Source of the DNA: Embleya scabrispora DSM 41855
Lineage (GTDB): Bacteria > Actinomycetota > Actinomycetes > Streptomycetales > Streptomycetaceae
DNA: 32,092 bases
NCBI RefSeq assembly: GCF_000372745.1
Contig: NZ_KB889732.1
Span: 100-32,191, forward strand
Direction: 5' to 3'
A model generated the notes under the pieces. It worked only from the letters and a program-made list of their open reading frames with translations, was not told where the DNA came from and made no database searches. Both the position numbers and the translations under genes were made by a program. How positions within the stretch are numbered: position 1 is the stretch's first letter; each line of letters begins with the position of its first letter. Of the stretch, positions 7,193 through 26,212 are shown one piece after another.

Positions 7193-7920
7193 CCGAGGCC
7201 CGCACAGATGCCGACATCGCGTAACAGGGTGGCGGCAGGGGGTGCCTCCATGTCTTCGCCCCGGCCCTCGCCTTCCTCGCTGTCGGTGGGTCGAGTTCCG
7301 GTGTGGGTGGTTCCTGGCGAGCGCGGCGTAGGCGCTCCGAGCGTGCGTCCGCGGCTTTGGCAAGCTGATCGAGACGCGCTGGGCAGTCCCCGAGTGCCTG
7401 ACGCTGTCGGGTTGCGCCGTGAGGCGCTGTGGTTCGAGTGGAGGTGAGAGACCACCGGCTCCGGCCTGGCGCAGCAGGCCGGTGTAGCCGAGGGCAGCCT
7501 GATCCGGGTGGTGCCGGGGAGGGCGGGAGCGGCCCTGACAAAGCCGGAACGTACCAGCGCTGCCAGATGGTGCGGGTCCGGCGAGCGAGACGAAGAGGAG
7601 TACGCGAGGAACCGGCGCTATTACGTCCTTCAATCCCGACACCGGCTCGAACCTGGCGGACCTGGGCCGGGCGCGGTGCGTCTCGTCGTCCGGCGGACGG
7701 CGAGGAACTCCCACGAACGTATCCAAGAGCGTGCGTGGGAGGCCACGAGGAAGGTCTGCGGCGTACTTGTGGCAATGCCGCTGGGATACAGCCGGGCTCC
7801 TACTTCGACGAACGAACCACAGTGAACACGGGAACCGCCCGATCACAGCTCCGCGTTCCTCACCTTCCATATGAGGAAGGTGGATAGGCGCACCGACAGC
7901 CGAACGGATCGAGCGGGGCG
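7193..7920. other. Geneless stretch after the sugar importer, probable mobile-element debris
   Basis: About 730 bp without a gene I can defend. A plus-strand frame at 7508-7825 is open, but its composition and lack of recognisable motifs argue against it. At 7861-7882, CACCTTCC and GGAAGGTG form a perfect 8-bp stem around ATATGA, with no T-tract. Together with the fragment at 7921-7974, the block could be the structured 5' part of a group II intron. That reading is an inference; no domain V could be identified. Confidence 0.35.
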
Positions 7921-7980: not shown

Positions 7981-8847
7981 TCATACTGCGCCTCCTGCGG
8001 TGATGGTTTGGGTTTGTGGAGTGTGCGTTCTTGTCTGAGCGGCGAGTTGACGGCAGACGGTCTCGTTGTCGCTGGTCCAGGGGACGCTGAGGCGGCCGCC
8101 CTTGCCTCGGTGGGTGTCCAGGCGGCCGCGGGTGATGCTGTAGTAGAGGGCGCCGGGGCGGATGCCGAGCCGTGTGGCGATCTGCTGGATGCTCAACTCA
8201 CCACGAGCCAGGGTCGTTTCGGGCAGAGGGCGACTGCCCGGGCCGGTGGGGCCGGGATGCCTGGGCCGTTCCAGCTGGGTGCGGACGTCGGATTCCACCT
8301 GATCGTTCCAAGGGATGATGACCCGGCCGGTGGGGCCATGGCGCGCGTGCAGGCGTCCGGTGCGGATCTGGTAGGCGACGGCTGCGGGCGGCACCCCGAG
8401 GCGGACGGCGGCCTGCTGGACGCTGAGTTCACTCTCGTCGCGGGTGGCGGCCGGCAGCGGACGGCTGCCCGTGCCGGTGCGGAAGAACTGCTTTGGGTCG
8501 GCGAGCCGGCCGCGGCAGTCGGCCTCGATGGCGTCGTTCCAGGGGATTGCGACGCGGCCGGCGTCGGTGCGGCGGGTTTGCTGGCGTTTGATGCGGATCC
8601 AGTAGTAGACGTCGTAGTCGTGAACGCCGAGGCGGCCGGCCGCGTCCTGCACGGAGATCTCGCCGCTGTGGTCGGCGTCCGTGATGGTGCGGGCACCGGG
8701 ACCTGCGGGGTTGAGGTGTCCGGAGCAGGCGATGCGACGGCGGCAATCGGCCTCGATCTCCGCCGTCCAGGGAACACACCAGCGTCCGCTGCGGTCCTGA
8801 CGAGCCGGCAGCCGGCCGTGGGTGATCCAGTCCCTCGTGGCGGTGTT
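7981..8847 (-). pseudogene. Tandem helix-turn-helix module protein, 5' end lost
   Basis: The frame reads continuously from about 8847 down to TGA 7981 and holds four copies of a module of about 65-75 residues. Each copy has a helix-turn-helix half of the LSVQQAAVRLGVPPAAV type, a Y/W-I-x-x-GRL wing, a G-R-[VLW]-x-[IV]-PW strand, and E-x-[DV]-x-R. The first copy retains only its second half (DWITHGRLPAR, then VPWTAEIEADCRRRI). The modules resemble MerR/HTH_17-type DNA-binding domains and may come from a recombinase or transposon-associated protein; I cannot name a family. A GTG at 8652 lies inside module two and would give a 223-residue, three-module product. Upstream of about 8850 the homologous frame disappears and a HEAT-like frame starts, so the gene is fused to foreign sequence or frameshifted. 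Linkers share a GSRPLPxxT motif. Confidence 0.55.
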
Positions 8848-8849
8848 CC

Positions 8850-9082
8850 CTCGCCAGTTGCGCGATCGCCAGGACCAGGCCGGCCCGCAGGCGGGGAACC
8901 TCCTCGACGCGGAACCGCTCGTGCAGGGCGGCGGAGATCTCCCAGGCGCGGCCGGACGACGCCGCCAGGACGCACGCCGCCTCCTCCCGCACCCGCGGAT
9001 CGAGGTCGTCCAGGAGGGCGATCGGGATGTGCGCGTCCGCGGCCCCGGGCAGCTCTTCGCCGATCGGGGCCACGACTACGAC
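8850..9082 (-). pseudogene. HEAT-repeat protein fragment
   Basis: About 78 residues in one minus-strand frame look like alpha-helical HEAT repeats: ALLDDLDPRVREEAACVLA, then AWEISAALHERFRVEE, then PRLRAGLVLAIAQLAREH. The DPxVRxxAAxxLA pattern is typical of actinomycete HEAT/PBS-lyase-like proteins. No start codon with a ribosome binding site is visible, and the frame breaks at about 8850, where the tandem helix-turn-helix frame begins. It is best read as a scrap of a larger gene joined to its neighbour by deletion. An original HEAT/HTH fusion broken by one frameshift is the alternative. Confidence 0.5.
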
Positions 9083-9122
9083 GTGTACCGCAGACCGCTG
9101 TGGAAACACGGGATCGAACCGG

Positions 9123-9830
9123 TCATTGCACGCCGCGGCACGCCCCACGGCTCGGGGCGGAGCTTTCGACGGCTCCGGGGAGGACGAGGCCGTGCTCGTA
9201 GGCGAATACGACAGCTTGGACGCGGTCGCGGAGGCCGAGTTTGGCGAGGATGCGGCTGATGTGGGTCTTGACGGTGCCCTCGGAGAGGAAGAGGGATCCT
9301 GCGATCTCGGTGTTGGACAGGCCGCGAGCGAGTTGGGCGAGGACTTCGCGTTCGCGGTTGGTCAGGGCGTCCAACTCGGTGTCACTCTCGGTCGATGCGG
9401 ACTCGGCGGTGACGTAGCGTTCGAGGAGCCGGCGTGTCACCGTGGGCGCGACGACGGCTTCGCCGCGGGCGATGATGCGAATCGCGGACAGGAGGTCCGG
9501 GGCGAGGGTGTCTTTGAGGAGGAAGCCGCTGGCGCCCGCTTGGACCGCGGTGTAGACGTATTCGTCGAGATCGAAGGTTGTGAGGATCAGCACGCGGATG
9601 TCGGTGGTCGAGTCGCCACCGCAGATGCGGCGGGTTGCCTCCACGCCGTCGACGTCGGGCATACGGACGTCCATCAGAATGACGTCGGGCCGGAGTTCGA
9701 GGGCCAGGGCTGCTGCTTCGGCCCCGTTTTCGACTTCACCGATGACCTCGATGTCGTCGGAGCCCTCCAAGATCATGCGGAAGCCCGTGCGTACCAGGGC
9801 CTGGTCGTCGGCGAGGAGAACTCGGATCAC
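9123..9830 (-). CDS. NarL/LuxR-family response regulator
   Basis: A 235-residue two-component response regulator. The receiver domain (about 1-120) has the acidic pocket in LLADDQ, the phospho-acceptor D54 in VILMDVRMPD, T85 in LTTF, and K106 in GFLLKDT. The C-terminal LuxR-type helix-turn-helix (about 160-222) has LTNREREVLAQLARGLSNTEIA and the recognition segment GTVKTHISRILAKLGLRDR. GTG 9830 overlaps the TGA of the upstream sensor kinase (GTGA), with GAGGGG about 8-12 nt before it. The last 15 residues (ESSAPSRGACRGVQ) look like a non-homologous extension and may reflect the rearranged junction downstream. It probably controls the divergent envelope operon starting at 11279; this is inferred from position. 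Confidence 0.95.
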   Translation of the reverse strand: MIRVLLADDQALVRTGFRMILEGSDDIEVIGEVENGAEAAALALELRPDVILMDVRMPDVDGVEATRRICGGDSTTDIRVLILTTFDLDEYVYTAVQAGASGFLLKDTLAPDLLSAIRIIARGEAVVAPTVTRRLLERYVTAESASTESDTELDALTNREREVLAQLARGLSNTEIAGSLFLSEGTVKTHISRILAKLGLRDRVQAVVFAYEHGLVLPGAVESSAPSRGACRGVQ

Positions 9831-11134
9831 GCGGCACGCCCCTCGATGGGCAGCGTCGCGCGGACAGTGAAGCCGCCGTCCGGGCCGGGCCCCGCGGTGA
9901 AACCGCCGCCGAGCGTGCGGGCGCGCTCCCGCATGCCGCGCAAACCGTTGCCTTGGCCGTCATCGCGCACCGTGCTGCGCCCGTTGTCGCTGACTTCGAT
10001 CGTGACTGCCCCGCTGTGGTAGGAGAGGACGACGTCTGCGTGTGCTCGCGGTCCTGCGTGCTTGATCGTATTCGTGAGCGCTTCCTGGACGATGCGGTAG
10101 GCGCTCGCGTCGACGGTCGCCGGGAGAGTGACGGGTGCGCCGCGGACGGCCAGGGACACGTGCGTGCCGGCCCGGTTCACCTTGCCGACCAGATCCGGCA
10201 GTTGTGCGAGTCCGAGGGGCGGGCCCCAGGCGTCGTCCACGCCCTCGCCGACCGCGTCCAGCACGCGGCGCATGTCGGCGAGGGAATCGCGGCCGGTCGC
10301 GACGATCGCTTCCAAGGCCGTGCGAGTCTGGGCGGGCCGCTTGTCCAGAGCCACGGCGGCGCCTTGGGCCTGGATCACCATGACCGACAGGCCGTGTGCC
10401 ACGACATCATGAAGCTCGCGGCTGATGCGGGCGCGTTCGGCGGCGGCGGCGAGGGCCGCCTTCTGGTCGCGCTCGCGTTCGAGACCGTCGGCGCGCTCGT
10501 GCAGCTCGGCGAGGTAGGCGCGGCGGCTCCGCGCGCCCGCGCCGATCGCCCAGGCTCCGACCAGTACGGAGCCCATGACGTACAAGCCGCTGACGTTGCC
10601 GGTCCAGGTCATTCGTCGGGACGCCATCTGGGGTCCGTCGGGGCCGGTGACTCTCAACGACGGTGCCGAGGGCGGCGGCTGGGTGCCGAATCCGGGAGAG
10701 GGTCTGTCGTCGACGACGTTGTAGACGCTCAGCCCGGTCGCGAGCGTGAGCAGGCCGACCAGCACCCCCATGGAGAGCTTCCGGTCGTACCGGTTCGCGA
10801 CCGTGCACAGCAGGATCGGCACGCCGAGGTCGACGAACGCCGACGGCAAAGTCAGCGTCAGGTTGATTCCGGCCGACGCGATGCACGCCGCGAGCATCGG
10901 CAGCGGCCACCGGCGGCGTAGTGCCACCCCCGTTACCGCCAGGGCCGTGGCCGTCCACCACACAGCCACCTCCGGGGTTGACGAGCCGTCGCCGTCCCCT
11001 GTTTGGTCGTGCACGACCCCGTCCGGGCTGCCCAGCACGAGATACAGCGCCAGCAGTGCGGACGCCAGCGCAGCGTCCCGCACGGCCGGGCGGCGCACCC
11101 AGGCGCGGGCAACGGTGGTCAACGACTTCGTCAT
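9827..11134 (-). CDS. NarL-type sensor histidine kinase
   Basis: A 435-residue membrane histidine kinase. The N-terminal half has about five or six hydrophobic segments (for example AALASALLALYLVLG and VGLLTLATGLSV), with an extracytoplasmic loop of about 40 residues rich in Pro and Ser between about 141 and 180. HisKA_3 starts near 233 with RISRELHDVVAHGLSVMVIQ and the phospho-acceptor H242. The HATPase_c domain has the N-box EALTNTIKHAG, the D-box VSDNGRS and the G-box GNGLRGMRERA. It pairs with the response regulator through a 4-bp overlap. Kinases of this architecture next to an ABC exporter often sense envelope stress or cell-wall antibiotics. The ligand here is unknown. Confidence 0.95.
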   Translation of the reverse strand: MTKSLTTVARAWVRRPAVRDAALASALLALYLVLGSPDGVVHDQTGDGDGSSTPEVAVWWTATALAVTGVALRRRWPLPMLAACIASAGINLTLTLPSAFVDLGVPILLCTVANRYDRKLSMGVLVGLLTLATGLSVYNVVDDRPSPGFGTQPPPSAPSLRVTGPDGPQMASRRMTWTGNVSGLYVMGSVLVGAWAIGAGARSRRAYLAELHERADGLERERDQKAALAAAAERARISRELHDVVAHGLSVMVIQAQGAAVALDKRPAQTRTALEAIVATGRDSLADMRRVLDAVGEGVDDAWGPPLGLAQLPDLVGKVNRAGTHVSLAVRGAPVTLPATVDASAYRIVQEALTNTIKHAGPRAHADVVLSYHSGAVTIEVSDNGRSTVRDDGQGNGLRGMRERARTLGGGFTAGPGPDGGFTVRATLPIEGRAA

Positions 11135-20079: not shown

Positions 20080-20095
20080 CCGGTTCCCGGCGACG

Positions 20096-20113
20096 AAGCC
20101 GGGGTGCGGTGCA
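20096..20113 (+). terminator. Small hairpin after the dioxygenase
   Basis: CCCGGC (20096-20101) and GCCGGG (20108-20113) form a 6-bp stem around GACGAA, 16 nt after the dioxygenase stop. It is a weak candidate terminator with no T-tract. Confidence 0.35.
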
Positions 20114-20169
20114 CCACCAGCGCCCCCGAATCGCCCTGTGGGCGGCCGGTGCGGGGCCGCTGACCGTGA

Positions 20170-21978
20170 CACGCCACCTACCAGTCGCTGGGCGCCGTCC
20201 TGACCGCCCACCAGGGCGCCTACGGCCTGGCCCTGGCCGGGTTCGACCTCGTGATCATCGACAAAGCCCACCGCACCAGCGGATCCATCGGGAAGGAATG
20301 GGCCGCCGTCCACGACAACACCCGACTCCCCGCCGCACGACGCCTCTACCTCACGGCCACGCCCCGGGTCTGGGAGCCGCCCGGGAACAGCGCCTACAGC
20401 GAAGCCACCACGTCGGACACCGACGCCGAGCTGCCCCCGGCCCTGGCCGAGGACGACGTGTGGGAGGACCCCGACCTGGTCGCCGGCCGGGACGATGCCG
20501 GCGGCGACGCCCCGGACCGGGAGTGGGACGACGAGGGCGAGGACGATCGGCCGGTTCGCGTGCGGGGCGGACGACCCGTGCACTCGGCCCTGCCCGCCCG
20601 CGCGGTCGCGTCCATGGACGACGAGACGATCTACGGCCCCGTCGTCCACCGTCGAACTCGCCGCGGGCGCCCGCATGGGCCTGATCGCGAGGCCGAGGGT
20701 CGTCGTCGTCGAGATCACCGACCCGCAGATCCAGGAGCTCGCGCGGGCCACCGGCAGCGCCCTCAACCGAGGCCTCGGCCGGCGGCGCATCGAAGAGGTC
20801 GAGCAGTACCGGGCCGCGCGCCTGGTCGCCCTGCAGACCGCAGTCCTGCGCGCCACGGCCGACGACGACCTGGACACGGTCATCGCCTACCACTCCCGCA
20901 CCCTGGAGGCCCAGGCCTGCGCCGCGAGCCTGCCCGACGGCGCCGTCCGACTGCACCGGGACGACCCGAAGCGTCATCCCGAACCGGTGTGGGCGGACTG
21001 GTTGAGCGGCGAACACCCCAACGACCACCGCCGCGACGTCCTGACCCGCTTCGTCGAACGCGCCGACACCCACGGCACCATCGCCCGGCGCGCGGTCCTC
21101 AGCAACGTCCGCGTCCTGGCCGAAGGCGTGGCTTGCGCGCCTGTGCGGTCGCCTTCATGGACCCCAAGTTCAGCATCGTCGAGATCGTCCGGGCCATCGG
21201 CCGAGCCCTGCGCCAGAATCCGGGCGAGGGACGCACCGCCACCGTCATCGTCCCCGTCTTCCTCGCACCCGGGGAACGACCCGACGACATGCTCGTCTCC
21301 GACAGCTACCACCCCCTCGTGCGAACCCTCCACGCCCTGGCCGCGCACGACGCCCGCGTCCTGGACATGCTCGCCACCCCCGCCCCCAGCGGACCCAAAA
21401 CCCGGACGCGAGCGATCGACATCGACGACACCGACTGCCGAACCGCCGAACCGCCGACGCCGGCGAGCACATCGAGGACCGGGACGACGTCGAGCCCGGT
21501 GACGGCGACCAGGACGACGCCGGCGTCGAGGAGCGGTTCCTCGTCCGGTTCATGACCGACCGCGACCCCACACTCCTGCGCGACTTCATCAACCTGCGCG
21601 TGATAAACCCGGAACGGCGGGACCGGCGGCGCGGCTACCACGCCGCGAAACGCCGGCACACGGCCCACGGAGACCTTCGGGTCCCGTTGGAGAGCATCGA
21701 CTACGACACCGAAACCGGGACGTCCTACCCGCTCGGGCAGTGGGTCGGCGACCAGCGACGCGCCCGCGCGGCCGGGTCGATCACCCCGCACCGGATCGAG
21801 CTGCGCGCGCGAAGGGCACCTGGCCGTGCCGCGCAAACACGTCAAGACCGTCGAGGCGGGCGGTGAGGCGCATGCGGTGAAGCTGGGTGTGGCGTTGGCG
21901 AACGCGCGGCAGCGGCGGGCGACATGGCCGGCGGAGCGGGTGGAGGCTTTGACCGGGCTCGGGATGCGGTGGGCGTAG
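20170..21978 (+). pseudogene. Helicase with helicase-associated (HA) domains, multiply frameshifted
   Basis: Homology begins abruptly with HATYQSLGAV and continues as AGFDLVIIDKAHRTSGSIGK, YLTATPRVW and MDDETIYGPVV. It shifts at about 20650 into a second frame (RPRVVVVEITDPQIQELA to LSNVRVLAEGV). At about 21130 it returns to the first (AVAFMDPKFSIVEIVRAIGRALRQ, motif VI). At about 21450 it enters a third (RFMTDRDPTLLRDFINLRVI and HGDLRVPLESIDYDTETG). At about 21805 it returns to the first and ends in a typical HA-domain tail (GHLAVPRKHVKTVE to EALTGLGMRWA) with TAG at 21976-21978. The N-terminal Walker A region is missing, and motif II is DKAH instead of DEAH. Such helicases are common on actinomycete plasmids and islands. 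It is clearly dead. Confidence 0.88.
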
Positions 21979-22014: not shown

Positions 22015-22071
22015 CAACCCCTCCGGAATACAGTCCCAGAGTTCAAGGCATCCGCAGTGTGTGAGGGGTTG
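22015..22071. terminator. Inverted repeat between convergent helicase pseudogene and nuclease gene
   Basis: CAACCCCTC (22015-22023) and GAGGGGTTG (22063-22071) are a perfect 9-bp inverted repeat with a 39-nt spacer. It spans the stop of the nuclease gene and lies just after the helicase stop. It may act as a bidirectional terminator; the long spacer makes this uncertain. Confidence 0.35.
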
Positions 22072-24070
22072 GGCGACCGATCGGGAGGACTCCTACAACG
22101 ACGAGTCGTGGGGTTTCCGTCGGAGTGCGGGCGTGGTGCGTGATCCAGATGCGGTCGTGGACGTCCGAGTAGCCGGAGTGGTGGTTGCTGTGGTCGCCGA
22201 CGATGAGCATCCCGAACGGCGGGCCGGTGGCCGTGTAGTTGGTGGCTTGCGCCAAGTAGACCTGTTCGACGGTTTCTCGGGCGGATCGGCTCTCACGGCG
22301 TTTGACCTCGATCACGAAGCGATTGCCGGGTTGGGGTGTGTAGGTGATGTCGGTGCGCCCGCCGGCGATGTCCATGATTTCTCTCTGGACGGTTCCCGGG
22401 ATCAGGGTGCCGCTCAGGTGCTGGTGCAAGTCGTCCTGCAGATGCTTTTCGGGCCACGGGCGCACTCGTCCCTCGTCGTCGGGGCGGGGTGGTCCGAGGT
22501 AGGCCGTGCGTTCGCCGTAGAGGTCGGCTTGGGCATCGAAGCGGTCGTACATGAAGCGCAGGAACTGTTCGAGCAGGGTGGTGAATTGGTGTGATTCCGG
22601 GGGGCGCCACGCGGGGCTGGCACGGAGCGTTTCGAGGAGCTCCTCGAGGTGTCCGTCGAACCGGTGGTTGCCGGTGGGGGTGTAGCCCAGGCGTGCGTGT
22701 CGTAGGTGGTCCTCGACGTTGTCGAGGAACGTCGCGTCGAGGTCACCGGGAAGGGTGCGCAGGAGTTGGGCCAGTTCGGGTCGCCCCTCGAGGGCTTTTC
22801 CCGGCACCGCGGCTCCCGTCGCGGTCTCGTGTGATGCTCTTTCTTGGATGGCGTGGAGCAGGGCGATGGCGTCCGGGTGCTCGGTGAAGCGCTCGTCGTG
22901 CAGCAGGGCTTGTTGCAGTTGGTGGCGACGGCCTTCGTTGCGGAGGAAGGGGGCTTCGATGGTGGGGGCGACGAGTGCGCTGATTCCACCGGTGGGTGAA
23001 TCGGTGGGTGCGTGGATGGAGCGGCTCGCAAGGTAGACGGCGAGCAGGTCGTTCAGGGCTGCGGCGGGCTCGTACCAGCTGGGTTCGGTCAGGCGGGTTG
23101 CGGCGACGCGTAGGGCGGTGACGAGTCGGGCCCATGCTCCTTGGGCGAGGCCGCGGGCGCTGAGCCAGTCGAGTTCGTGGAGGCCGAAGGTCCATGCGGT
23201 GAGGTCGTCGAGGGTGGTTTCCAGGGAGTCGGTGGCGTTCTTGAGGCGTGTGCGGGTCTGGTCGGATCCGGGATCGTGTTCGAGGGCGGAGAAGGCCAGG
23301 ATGGCGTCGATGGCGGCGGCGCGGGCGTCGAGTCGGTTCTCGTTGTCGTGGTCCAGCCGGGTGAGTCGGAGCAGGGCCCGGCCGAGGTGGAGTTCGGTGT
23401 CGGCGCGGTCGCCGGCTTGGAGGTTGCGGAGGTCGGCCTGGGCGAGTTCGAAGCCGGCGTCGGCGCGTGTGGCGTGGGGCAGGTCGGCCCGGTTCTCGAT
23501 GGTGGTGAGGACGTCGAGGAGGGCGGGCTCGTCGAAGTGGTCGTGGGCCACGCCGATGAGGATGGGGAGTCGCTCGAGGGCATCCACCGGTTCGCCGCCG
23601 GTGATTTCGGTGAGGAGCGCCAGTAGCCGGTGAGGCCTTGCCTGGCCGGAGATCGCGAGACGAAGCATTCCCGAGATGGCGGGTTGGGCGTATGCGGCGT
23701 GGTCGTTGTCGGGTTCGAGTGCGGTCTCTGCGTGGGTGGTGAGTCGGCGGGCCGGTTGGTCCCCGAGGCGGGCGAGCAGGGCCGGTCGTTCGCACAGGGC
23801 GTCGATGGCGGCGGCGAGTACCCAGGCGGCGTGTGGGCGGGTGATGCCCTGCACGATCGCGGCGAGTAGGGGGGCGGTTGTGGTGTCTTCGAGAGCGTGG
23901 GCTGCGGCGTGGACGAGGTAGCGGAGCTGGGGGCCGGCGGCGAGGGTGGGTGCCTCGGTGAGGGCGGCGTCGCGGCCGCCGAGGTCGTCGAGGGTGGGGC
24001 CGGCAGCAAGGTGGTCGTCCGTGGCGCGGGTGGCCCAGGCCTGGAGCGCTCGATCGACGGTGTGTGCCAT
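22043..24070 (-). CDS. Large helical-repeat protein with C-terminal PD-(D/E)XK nuclease domain
   Basis: A 675-residue protein of unknown family. Residues 1 to about 440 are almost entirely amphipathic helices with many Leu/Ala pairs (HEAT/TPR-like solenoid). About 440-540 is a charged linker region. The C-terminal part carries a nuclease pattern: E564 in QREIMDIAGG, D574 in GRTDITY, E588 and K590 in FVIEVKRRE, and Q608 in VYLAQATNY. This is the E-x9-D-x13-E-x-K-Q order of PD-(D/E)XK enzymes of the Mrr/restriction type. It has no signal peptide or membrane segment. AGGAGG lies about 5 nt before ATG 24070. The upstream frame ends at 24117, 46 nt away, with an ATPase-like tail, so the pair was probably an ATPase-nuclease operon, plausibly anti-phage. 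The gene itself looks intact. Confidence 0.85.
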   Translation of the reverse strand: MAHTVDRALQAWATRATDDHLAAGPTLDDLGGRDAALTEAPTLAAGPQLRYLVHAAAHALEDTTTAPLLAAIVQGITRPHAAWVLAAAIDALCERPALLARLGDQPARRLTTHAETALEPDNDHAAYAQPAISGMLRLAISGQARPHRLLALLTEITGGEPVDALERLPILIGVAHDHFDEPALLDVLTTIENRADLPHATRADAGFELAQADLRNLQAGDRADTELHLGRALLRLTRLDHDNENRLDARAAAIDAILAFSALEHDPGSDQTRTRLKNATDSLETTLDDLTAWTFGLHELDWLSARGLAQGAWARLVTALRVAATRLTEPSWYEPAAALNDLLAVYLASRSIHAPTDSPTGGISALVAPTIEAPFLRNEGRRHQLQQALLHDERFTEHPDAIALLHAIQERASHETATGAAVPGKALEGRPELAQLLRTLPGDLDATFLDNVEDHLRHARLGYTPTGNHRFDGHLEELLETLRASPAWRPPESHQFTTLLEQFLRFMYDRFDAQADLYGERTAYLGPPRPDDEGRVRPWPEKHLQDDLHQHLSGTLIPGTVQREIMDIAGGRTDITYTPQPGNRFVIEVKRRESRSARETVEQVYLAQATNYTATGPPFGMLIVGDHSNHHSGYSDVHDRIWITHHARTPTETPRLVVVGVLPIGRPTPHTLRMP

Positions 24071-24116
24071 GGCCCCCTCCTCTGGCGGGTCGCCCCAGGT
24101 TGGAACGGATGCTCGA

Positions 24117-24330
24117 TCAGAACAGGTGCTCGTCGGTGCTGGTGATGATGTGGTCCTGCGGGAGGATTCCTTCGACCAGGTCGGGCTGAGCCGTGGTCAG
24201 GATCACTTGGAGGTCCGGGAGTTCTTCGGTGGTCCTGTGCAGCGGCCCACGCGGTGGCCCACGGGGTGACGATCAGGCCGTCCGGCGTCGTCTGCCCGAT
24301 CCTCGCTCGGGGACGGGCAGCCCCGCGATC
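24117..24330 (-). pseudogene. C-terminal remnant of an AAA/SMC-like ATPase
   Basis: The last 40 residues before TGA 24117 read TEELPDLQVILTTAQPDLVE, then GILPQDHIITSTDEHLF. This matches the end of AAA/OLD/RecF-like ATPases, where Walker B and D-loop are followed by QVILTTHSP and a switch residue; here the usual His-Ser is Ala-Gln. Just upstream another frame reads GQTTPDGLIVTPWATAWAAA, which fits the same protein after a one-base shift at about 24240. Earlier domains (Walker A, signature, Walker B) were not found. The gene is truncated or heavily eroded. Its position directly upstream of the nuclease gene suggests a former two-gene unit. Confidence 0.5.
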
Positions 24331-24688
24331 GAGGTGGCAAATCCCGGATCCGGGCTGGGTGTCGAGGAGGTTGTGAGGACTCCGCAACGCCAGTTCCACT
24401 GCTCGCCGGCCGATGAAGGCGCCCGAAACAGGGAAATATCGCCGGACAAGCTTGCGGCCGACGTGGGGCAGAAGACGACGAACGTCGTCGCACCAACATC
24501 CTCGCACCGACCGGCATGCCCATCGGCCGCTGTGTCCGACCGCGCGTTCAAGACCACCGTCCCCGCCCCCACCCCGCGCGGCCACCTTTGGTCCGGGCGC
24601 CGACTTGGCCTCGGTATCGATTGGGCGTGATTCCTTCGGGGCATGAATCCCCCTGTCGCACATACGACTTCTTCGAATCGGAGGGTGA
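24331..24688. other. Intergenic stretch upstream of the hexosaminidase
   Basis: About 360 bp with no gene I can support. Open minus-strand frames continue from the ATPase remnant but show no recognisable motif. A short hairpin GACGAC-GAAC-GTCGTC occurs at about 24473-24489. The hexosaminidase promoter should lie at about 24560-24680; no confident -35/-10 pair was seen. Confidence 0.35.
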
Positions 24689-26212
24689 GTGACCGACAGG
24701 CCGAACCTGATTCCCGCACCGCGTCGACTGGAATTGACCGGAGGCTCGGGGCCGCTCGGCGACACGGTGGAGCACCGCGTCGATCCGGAACTCGGGCCGG
24801 AGGCGTACCGGCTCACCGTGGCGGCCGACCGGGTGGAGATCGTCGGTGGCGACGACGCGGGTGTGTTCTGGGGGCGGCAGACCCTGCGCCAACTGGGCGG
24901 CCCGAACGCCTTCCGTCGCGCGCCGCTGAGCCGGGAGCCGGTCGTCGTCCCATACCTCATCGTCGAGGACGCGCCGCGTTTCGCCTGGCGGGGCATGATG
25001 CTCGACGTCGCACGGCACTTCATGGCCAAGGACGACGTGTTGCGCTACGTGGACGTACTGGCCGCGCACAAGCTGAACGTGCTGCACCTGCACCTCACCG
25101 ACGACCAGGGGTGGCGCGTCGAGATCAAGCGGTATCCGCGGCTGACCGAAGTGGGCGCGTGGCGGCCCCGGACCCGGCTGGGCTGGGGAGAGCCGGCGCT
25201 CTGGGACGAGCGTCCGCACGGGGGCTTCCACACCCAGGACGACCTGCGGGAGATCGTCGCCTACGCGGCCGAGCGGCATGTTCGGGTCGTACCCGAGATC
25301 GACCTGCCCGGGCATTCGCAGGCGGCCATTGCGGCGTACCCGGAACTGGGCAACGCCGACGTGGTGGACACCGGTGCGCTGGGAGTGAAGACCGATTGGG
25401 GCATCAGCCCTCACGTGTTGGCCCCCACCGACGCGGTGATCCGGTTCTACGAGGGCGTGTTCACCGAGATCCTGGAGCTGTTTCCCGGAAGGTACGTGCA
25501 CATCGGCGGCGACGAGTGTCTCAAGGAACAGTGGCGCGAATCACCCACCGCCCAGGCCCGCATCGCCGAACTGGGCGTCGACGACGAGGACGGTCTCCAG
25601 TCCTGGATGATCCGCCATTTCGACCACTGGCTGGCCGAACGGGGGCGCCGACTCATCGGCTGGGACGAGATCCTGCAAGGCGGTCTGGCCCCCGGCGCGG
25701 CGGTCATGTGCTGGCGCTGGTACACCGGAGGCATCGCCGCCGCCGAGGCCGGCCACGACGTCGTGATGTGTCCTCAGCAGGAGGTCTACCTCGACCACGT
25801 CCAGTCGGCGGACGCGGGTGAACCCGTTCCCTTCGGCTGGGTGCACACCTTGGAGGACGTCTACCGGTTCGAACCCGTACCACCACGGCTGACCGGCACT
25901 CCCCACGCGGCACACGTTGTCGGAGCCCAAGCCAACCTGTGGAGCGAAGTCACCGAGAACCGGGGCCGCGTGGACTATCAGGCGTTCCCCCGCCTCGCGG
26001 CCTTCGCGGAAGCGGTGTGGTCCACCCTGCCGCACCCGGACGAGCGCGACTTCGACGACTTCGAGCGCCGGATGCACGAGGCGCACTACGCCCGCCTGGA
26101 AGCGCTGGGCATCGCCTACCGACCGCCCGCCGGCCCACACCCCTGGCAACAACGCCCCGGCGTCCCCGGCCGAATGCACCACAAACCCCGCCGCCCATGG
26201 CACACGGCCTGA
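24689..26212 (+). CDS. GH20 beta-N-acetylhexosaminidase
   Basis: A 507-residue glycoside hydrolase of family 20, releasing terminal beta-linked N-acetylhexosamines by substrate-assisted catalysis. An N-terminal GH20b domain (about 1-95) includes AYRLTV and GVFWGRQTLRQL. The barrel begins with RFAWRGMMLDVARHFM, followed by NVLHLHLTDDQGWRVEIKRY, RVVPEIDLPGHSQAAI, and the catalytic pair D275-E276 in HIGGDECLKE. Active-site aromatic residues follow (WDEI, MCWRWY, GAQANLWSE). GGAG lies about 5 nt before GTG 24689. Unlike secreted Streptomyces chitobiases it shows no signal peptide, so it probably acts inside the cell on imported chitobiose or similar oligosaccharides. It is monocistronic here, with no transporter beside it. 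Confidence 0.95.
   Translation: MTDRPNLIPAPRRLELTGGSGPLGDTVEHRVDPELGPEAYRLTVAADRVEIVGGDDAGVFWGRQTLRQLGGPNAFRRAPLSREPVVVPYLIVEDAPRFAWRGMMLDVARHFMAKDDVLRYVDVLAAHKLNVLHLHLTDDQGWRVEIKRYPRLTEVGAWRPRTRLGWGEPALWDERPHGGFHTQDDLREIVAYAAERHVRVVPEIDLPGHSQAAIAAYPELGNADVVDTGALGVKTDWGISPHVLAPTDAVIRFYEGVFTEILELFPGRYVHIGGDECLKEQWRESPTAQARIAELGVDDEDGLQSWMIRHFDHWLAERGRRLIGWDEILQGGLAPGAAVMCWRWYTGGIAAAEAGHDVVMCPQQEVYLDHVQSADAGEPVPFGWVHTLEDVYRFEPVPPRLTGTPHAAHVVGAQANLWSEVTENRGRVDYQAFPRLAAFAEAVWSTLPHPDERDFDDFERRMHEAHYARLEALGIAYRPPAGPHPWQQRPGVPGRMHHKPRRPWHTA

What the first reader, a model, noticed from the sequence alone, without database searches (positions are those of the whole stretch)
22043..24330. Helical-repeat/PD-(D/E)XK nuclease gene with an eroded ATPase partner: candidate defence system
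The intact 675-aa protein joins a long helical solenoid to a restriction-type nuclease motif (E564, D574, E588, K590, Q608). The gene just upstream ends with an AAA/SMC-like tail 46 nt before its start. ATPase plus nuclease pairs are a recurring plan in phage defence, and a helicase pseudogene lies next door. I cannot place the fusion in a named system.
Basis: partly seen in the sequence, partly recalled or inferred. Interest (0 to 1): 0.7.

Follow-up and report, generated by a model that had tools for sequence, protein, structure and literature searches.

The report
Leftover nuclease of broken Lamassu defence
The gene is the intact DNA-cutting part (LmuA) of a known anti-phage, anti-plasmid defence system called Lamassu, whose two partner genes are gone here except for the last 41 codons of one; an intact copy survives on a plasmid of a related soil bacterium, so this looks like a relic rather than a new system.

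Summary
The C-terminus is predicted to fold as a PD-(D/E)XK nuclease. It has a name: LmuA of Lamassu, PADLOC E 1.3e-164 end to end. The upstream tail is the last 41 codons of LmuB. The 16 other full-length LmuA genes found in 394 family genomes all have LmuB and LmuC directly upstream. A 96%-identical stretch (DNA) lies in an intact LmuC-LmuB-LmuA operon 13 kb from the end of a linear Embleya plasmid. In the window that identity stops at 24242, inside LmuB; slivers of other genes follow. Own-genome searches find no intact LmuB or LmuC, only a broken Lamassu relic of another lineage. So this is an orphaned effector of a broken Lamassu operon, probably inert. Mildly notable: the nuclease is C-terminal, not N-terminal as described for LmuA.

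The parts
22043..24070 (-). LmuA, intact 675-aa effector (N-terminal helical solenoid, C-terminal PD-(D/E)XK nuclease)
   Evidence: PADLOC PDLC03853 LmuA E 1.3e-164; 95% amino-acid identity to LmuA of an intact operon on Embleya plasmid NZ_CP108778.1
22046..22609 (-). nuclease domain, residues 488-675
   Evidence: codons E564 22379-22381, D574 22349-22351, E588 22307-22309, K590 22301-22303, Q608 22247-22249 (positions by arithmetic from the start codon; residues invariant)
24071..24116 (-). 46-nt gap between the LmuB remnant and LmuA
   Evidence: the gap in the Embleya operon is 47 nt (12954-13000 of L126)
24117..24242 (-). LmuB remnant: last 41 codons plus stop
   Evidence: LmuB model, E 8.5e-7, on 24120-24272; 122 of 123 nt identical to the end of the Embleya LmuB
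24243..24618 (.). scrap DNA beyond the break: sliver like a PCMT-type methyltransferase (about 24242-24285) and a 39/40-nt sliver like an IS110-type transposase (24493-24531)
   Evidence: Pfam of the two similar genes
20092..21978 (+). convergent helicase pseudogene (helicase-associated, HA, type), in several frames, with a gap of about 540 nt relative to the Embleya plasmid helicase; a neighbour, not shown to be part of the system

Best explanation
A disabled Lamassu operon. In intact relatives LmuC, LmuB (an SMC/Rad50-like ATPase with two CxxC pairs, as in a zinc hook) and LmuA are encoded in that order. LmuB/LmuC would sense foreign DNA and switch on LmuA, whose C-terminal PD-(D/E)XK domain would cut DNA and stop or kill the infected cell. 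Here a break inside the 3' end of LmuB removed LmuC and all but 41 codons of LmuB and joined the rest to unrelated scrap DNA. LmuA stayed intact, probably because it parted from an intact plasmid copy recently. Without a partner it is most likely inert. Shown: family, operon order in relatives, sharp break, invariant catalytic residues, predicted fold, no intact partner found in this assembly. Inferred: DNA cleavage, activation by LmuB/LmuC, inertness when alone, and how the break arose.
For: LmuA model match over the whole protein. LmuB tail. LmuB and LmuC directly upstream of 16 of 16 other full-length LmuA genes in 394 sampled family genomes (LmuB E 1.5e-131 or better, one of the 16, G161, in two pieces). 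Intact orthologous operon on NZ_CP108778.1 with PADLOC matches for all three genes and 95.95% DNA identity over window 22031-24242, ending inside LmuB. Own-genome searches for LmuB and LmuC give only this tail, a frameshifted relic on contig C163, and weak hits. C163 belongs to another Lamassu lineage: main segments of its LmuB/LmuC are about 47-61% to the L032-L036 group against about 33-40% to L037-L040, while the window LmuA (58-59%) and LmuB tail (63-66%) are closest to the latter group. Nuclease fold. LmuA dS to the plasmid copy is 0.080 against 0.318 for the neighbouring GH20 gene in the same two strains.
Against: The nuclease is at the opposite end from the published LmuA description (effector N-terminal; PMC10586767, passages). 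No activity data. LmuA shows no decay at conserved sites: it keeps 48 of 50 columns, against 46 for L043 and 43 for the more divergent L047, and its dN/dS to the plasmid copy is 0.26, close to 0.18-0.24 in four pairs of LmuA from complete operons. That would also fit continued function.
Confidence: 0.9

Rival explanations
1. LmuA is still used: it works alone or with a different ATPase of the same genome.
For: Intact frame; against the plasmid copy the nuclease domain has 17 synonymous and 3 non-synonymous differences, the solenoid 23 and 28 (Fisher P 0.003, no such contrast in the three reference pairs tested); no resolved amino-acid change in the nuclease domain on the window branch, 1 unresolved; the two indels that separate the two LmuA genes are in frame.
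Against: Small counts and a contrast noticed after the fact. Resolved solenoid changes fall evenly on both branches (9 and 8, 9 unresolved), so they do not mark partner loss. The two other near-complete LmuA genes that I saw without a complete LmuB/LmuC are damaged: an in-frame stop at codon 12 in S. hygroscopicus (L116; a later start could bypass it) and a frameshift in a Rhodococcus plasmid (L133). Recency explains intactness as well.
Confidence: 0.07
2. The LmuB break is a misassembly and the strain has a whole operon.
For: Draft genome of 190 contigs.
Against: A misjoin should leave the rest of this LmuB and LmuC on other contigs; only the C163 relic of a different lineage is found. Listed completeness 98.34%.
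Confidence: 0.04
3. The C163 LmuC-LmuB piece and the window are two halves of one split operon.
For: Their LmuB breaks look complementary: residue 617 on C163, 629 in the window, in L037 numbering.
Against: The halves fall in different Lamassu lineages, and C163 LmuB/LmuC are frameshifted.
Confidence: 0.01

Closest known systems
Lamassu, LmuC-LmuB-LmuA form (PADLOC models PDLC03872, PDLC03864, PDLC03853; a Lamassu with LmuC is called type II in PMC8565338, passages)
   Same: LmuA matches end to end; the LmuB tail matches; relatives keep the full operon
   Different: LmuC and nearly all of LmuB are missing here; the nuclease is at the C-terminus, not the N-terminus as in the published description (PMC10586767, passages)
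Lamassu operon of Embleya sp. NBC_00896 linear plasmid NZ_CP108778.1
   Same: 96% DNA identity from the LmuB tail through LmuA; a convergent HA helicase follows LmuA in both
   Different: that operon is complete; the window helicase is broken, 92% like another Embleya helicase copy for most of its length, and at its end more like the plasmid one (79% against 75% DNA identity, over unequal lengths)
McrC of McrBC
   Same: closest solved fold of the nuclease domain (6ut7, E 5.1e-4; 6hz4, E 1.8e-3)
   Different: 13% and 12% identity; the upstream partner in relatives is LmuB, not McrB

Membership tests
Lamassu | LmuA homologue, full length | tested here: met
   PDLC03853, E 1.3e-164, residues 3-673 on positions 2-653 of 655
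Lamassu | LmuB SMC-like ATPase in the operon | tested here: not met
   only 41 codons at 24120-24242; no intact copy found in the assembly. Present beside 16 of 16 other full-length LmuA genes
Lamassu | LmuC (type II form) | tested here: not met
   only fragments on contig C163 and two weak hits elsewhere; found upstream in 16 of 16 relatives (the L036 stretch as I took it holds one stop)
Lamassu | effector domain at the LmuA N-terminus (as described in PMC10586767) | tested here: not met
   nuclease core at residues 541-626; the catalytic columns lie at the C-terminal end in the 16 aligned relatives too
Lamassu | LmuB with ATP-binding site and zinc hook (in relatives) | tested here: met
   G97, K98, S100 and C384, C387, C405, C408 invariant in 16 of 16 LmuB; the meaning of the motifs is recalled
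Lamassu | anti-phage or anti-plasmid activity | not testable with these tools
   needs an experiment
PD-(D/E)XK nuclease superfamily | core fold with the acidic/lysine motif | tested here: met
   (predicted structure; one Foldseek match at or under E 0.001)
McrBC | McrC nuclease with an McrB AAA+ GTPase partner | tested here: not met
   fold resemblance only; the partner in relatives is LmuB
Gabija or Septu (ATPase plus nuclease) | match of this protein to their PADLOC models | tested here: not met
   LmuA is the only PADLOC family reported for this protein up to E 10

The most novel reading that the evidence does not exclude
An orphaned LmuA nuclease that outlives its sensor and stays under selection, acting alone or with a different sensor, as a scavenged effector in end-of-replicon regions.
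Probability: 0.07. Interest if true: 0.5.

Novelty: new member of a known kind. Interest (0 to 1): 0.25.

Why it matters
It turns an unplaced gene into a named relic and offers a natural experiment: an intact LmuA without LmuB/LmuC, and a 95%-identical LmuA that still has both. Comparing the two would test whether LmuA is harmless without its sensor. The family also shows a Lamassu effector with its nuclease at the other end of the protein. Its plasmid-borne members in Streptomycetaceae mostly lie near record ends, which fits the published enrichment of Lamassu at Streptomyces chromosome ends (PMC10482375, passages).

Tried and rejected
Split-operon idea: one search suggested that contig C163 holds the missing front of the operon; one search showed a different Lamassu lineage, so it was dropped.

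Family libraries: Pfam and NCBIfam give nothing meaningful for LmuA (best E 0.29 and 0.21). Profile search of solved structures by sequence: best E 0.24. Foldseek of the whole model gives mostly helical-repeat proteins with low TM-scores, none at or under E 0.001, with McrC at rank 32; the nuclease was clearer when modelled alone. No record in the phage collection matches LmuA. A first scan of named genomes with the single protein found no relative.

Junction origin: DNA searches around the window break and the C163 break in four genomes of the genus showed no clear mobile element; near the window break there is only an IS110-like sliver about 250 nt away. Two structural papers on Lamassu cited in PMC12799240 are not held. 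The library has no paper with both 'Lamassu' and 'PDDEXK'.

How often such genes lie near any locus by chance was not measured.

LmuB model breadth: at E 0.001 it also rings in 6 of 14 control genomes and 107 of 394 family genomes, so I used only matches of E 1.5e-131 or better beside LmuA.

Full report
Observation. The minus-strand ORF 22043-24070 is intact and encodes 675 residues. AlphaFold2 gives a helical solenoid for about residues 1-525 and then helix, three strands, helix, strand with those residues in place (pLDDT 80.2, pTM 0.57). The C-terminal 188 residues modelled alone (pLDDT 83.8, pTM 0.84) match McrC best (E 5.1e-4, the only match at or under 0.001). Weaker matches include Cdn1, NucS/EndoMS, OkrAI, Hjc and EcoRV, which I recall as PD-(D/E)XK enzymes, among some unrelated proteins. 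The upstream open tail ends 46 nt before the LmuA start, as stated.

Identity. PADLOC's only reported match is LmuA (PDLC03853), E 1.3e-164, over residues 3-673; its two parts also match separately. The upstream 51-codon open stretch matches the last 42 positions of LmuB PDLC03864 (E 8.5e-7). Of 394 genomes sampled from the family, 28 have an LmuA match: 17 full length, this one included, and 11 partial or weak. The 16 other full-length copies all have an LmuB match (E 1.5e-131 or better; one, G161, in two pieces) whose end lies within 130 nt upstream, and LmuC upstream of that (one LmuC stretch as I took it holds a stop). The 16 LmuB relatives keep invariant G97, K98, S100 and four cysteines in two CxxC pairs.

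The intact orthologue. A plasmid search found 29 records; the best is 94.7% identical in protein, on the 325-kb linear plasmid of Embleya sp. NBC_00896. There LmuC, LmuB and LmuA stand in order, annotated as hypothetical proteins and matched by PADLOC, and are followed by a convergent 'Helicase associated domain protein'. Window 22031-24242 aligns at 95.95% DNA identity. It stops at 24242, at codon 687 of the 727-codon LmuB, and different sequence follows. That sequence holds a sliver like a PCMT-type methyltransferase and a 39/40-nt sliver like an IS110-type transposase. On the other side, window 20092-21811 of the helicase pseudogene is 92% like another Embleya helicase copy, while its last 55 codons are 82% like the plasmid helicase in protein. 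So the LmuA island looks like a scrap of about 2.4 kb with foreign joins on both sides; the helicase-side join is the less certain. That this strain is an Embleya is inferred from these identities; no tool named it.

No partner. Own-genome searches for LmuB and LmuC return this tail, one relic on contig C163 where LmuB and LmuC lie in several frames, and weak hits of E 4e-4 or worse (LmuB) and 0.7 or worse (LmuC) elsewhere. C163 looked like the other half of a split operon, but its LmuB and LmuC belong to another lineage. So remains of two different Lamassu operons lie in this genome.

Age and selection. LmuA dS to the plasmid copy is 0.080, against 0.318 for the GH20 gene beside it in the same two strains, so this LmuA parted from the plasmid copy more recently than that neighbour from its counterpart. 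dN/dS is 0.264, against 0.175-0.239 in four pairs of LmuA from complete operons. By majority of outgroups, 9 amino-acid changes fall on the window branch and 10 on the plasmid branch, of 29; by the strict rule 5 and 3, with 21 ambiguous. The nuclease domain has 17 synonymous and 3 non-synonymous differences, the solenoid 23 and 28 (Fisher P 0.003); three of the four reference pairs were tested and show no such contrast. This was noticed after the fact on small counts. It does not separate continued use from a recent loss.

Other orphans. S. hygroscopicus ATCC 21589 (L116) has an LmuA with a stop at codon 12, which a later start could bypass, and no LmuB or LmuC match in the 4.1 kb before it. 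A Rhodococcus plasmid has a 105-residue LmuB tail followed by a frameshifted LmuA, with no LmuC match of note. Six distinct shorter LmuA pieces were compared (L048/L121, L049, L050, L051/L125, L135, L136): five keep the C-terminal end and one does not; L136 is cut by the start of its record. Smaller pieces (in G031, G157, G020 and G022), some of them N-terminal, were not examined further. The damage in the two other near-complete orphans favours decay over retention, weakly.

Location. Of the 25 plasmid records listed, 20 are Streptomyces or Embleya; 16 of these 20 lie within 30 kb of a record end, against 5.3 expected for uniform placement. Four further records were not listed, two rows are near-identical S. 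longwoodensis plasmids, one place is cut by the record start, and topology was seen only for the records that I opened. This agrees with the published end enrichment of Lamassu in Streptomyces (PMC10482375, passages).

Mechanism. From the review passages (PMC10586767), LmuB is thought to be the sensor and the system to act by abortive infection through LmuA. A 2025 paper (PMC12799240, passages) states that oligomerisation on sensing activates Lamassu effectors. I infer the same for the intact relatives, with DNA cleavage by LmuA, and expect the window LmuA to be inert without LmuB and LmuC. None of this was measured.

Noticed in passing
contig C163 of the same genome, L066 about 8480-10900 (minus): A second Lamassu relic of another lineage: LmuC and LmuB broken into several frames, no LmuA match, next to an HA helicase piece.
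   Followed up: yes
L112, L113, L114, L039/L118, L116, L131, L126, window, L066: An HA-type helicase recurs beside Lamassu genes, in several cases just upstream of LmuC on the same strand, in others convergent after LmuA. Background rate not measured.
   Followed up: partly
20092-21978: The helicase pseudogene may be a hybrid: most is 92% like one Embleya helicase copy, its end is nearer the plasmid helicase. Similar helicase DNA occurs many times in this genome.
   Followed up: partly
24689-26212: Intact gene of GH20 (beta-N-acetylhexosaminidase) type, named from the annotation of weaker hits; 89.5% DNA identity to Embleya sp. NBC_00896 over 24619-26212.
   Followed up: partly
7413-7836: Similar to an annotated IS1380-family transposase of a Rhodococcus plasmid.
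   Followed up: no
L133 7638-10042: Rhodococcus sp. 008 plasmid: an LmuB tail of 105 residues followed by a frameshifted LmuA, the same kind of truncation in another genus.
   Followed up: partly
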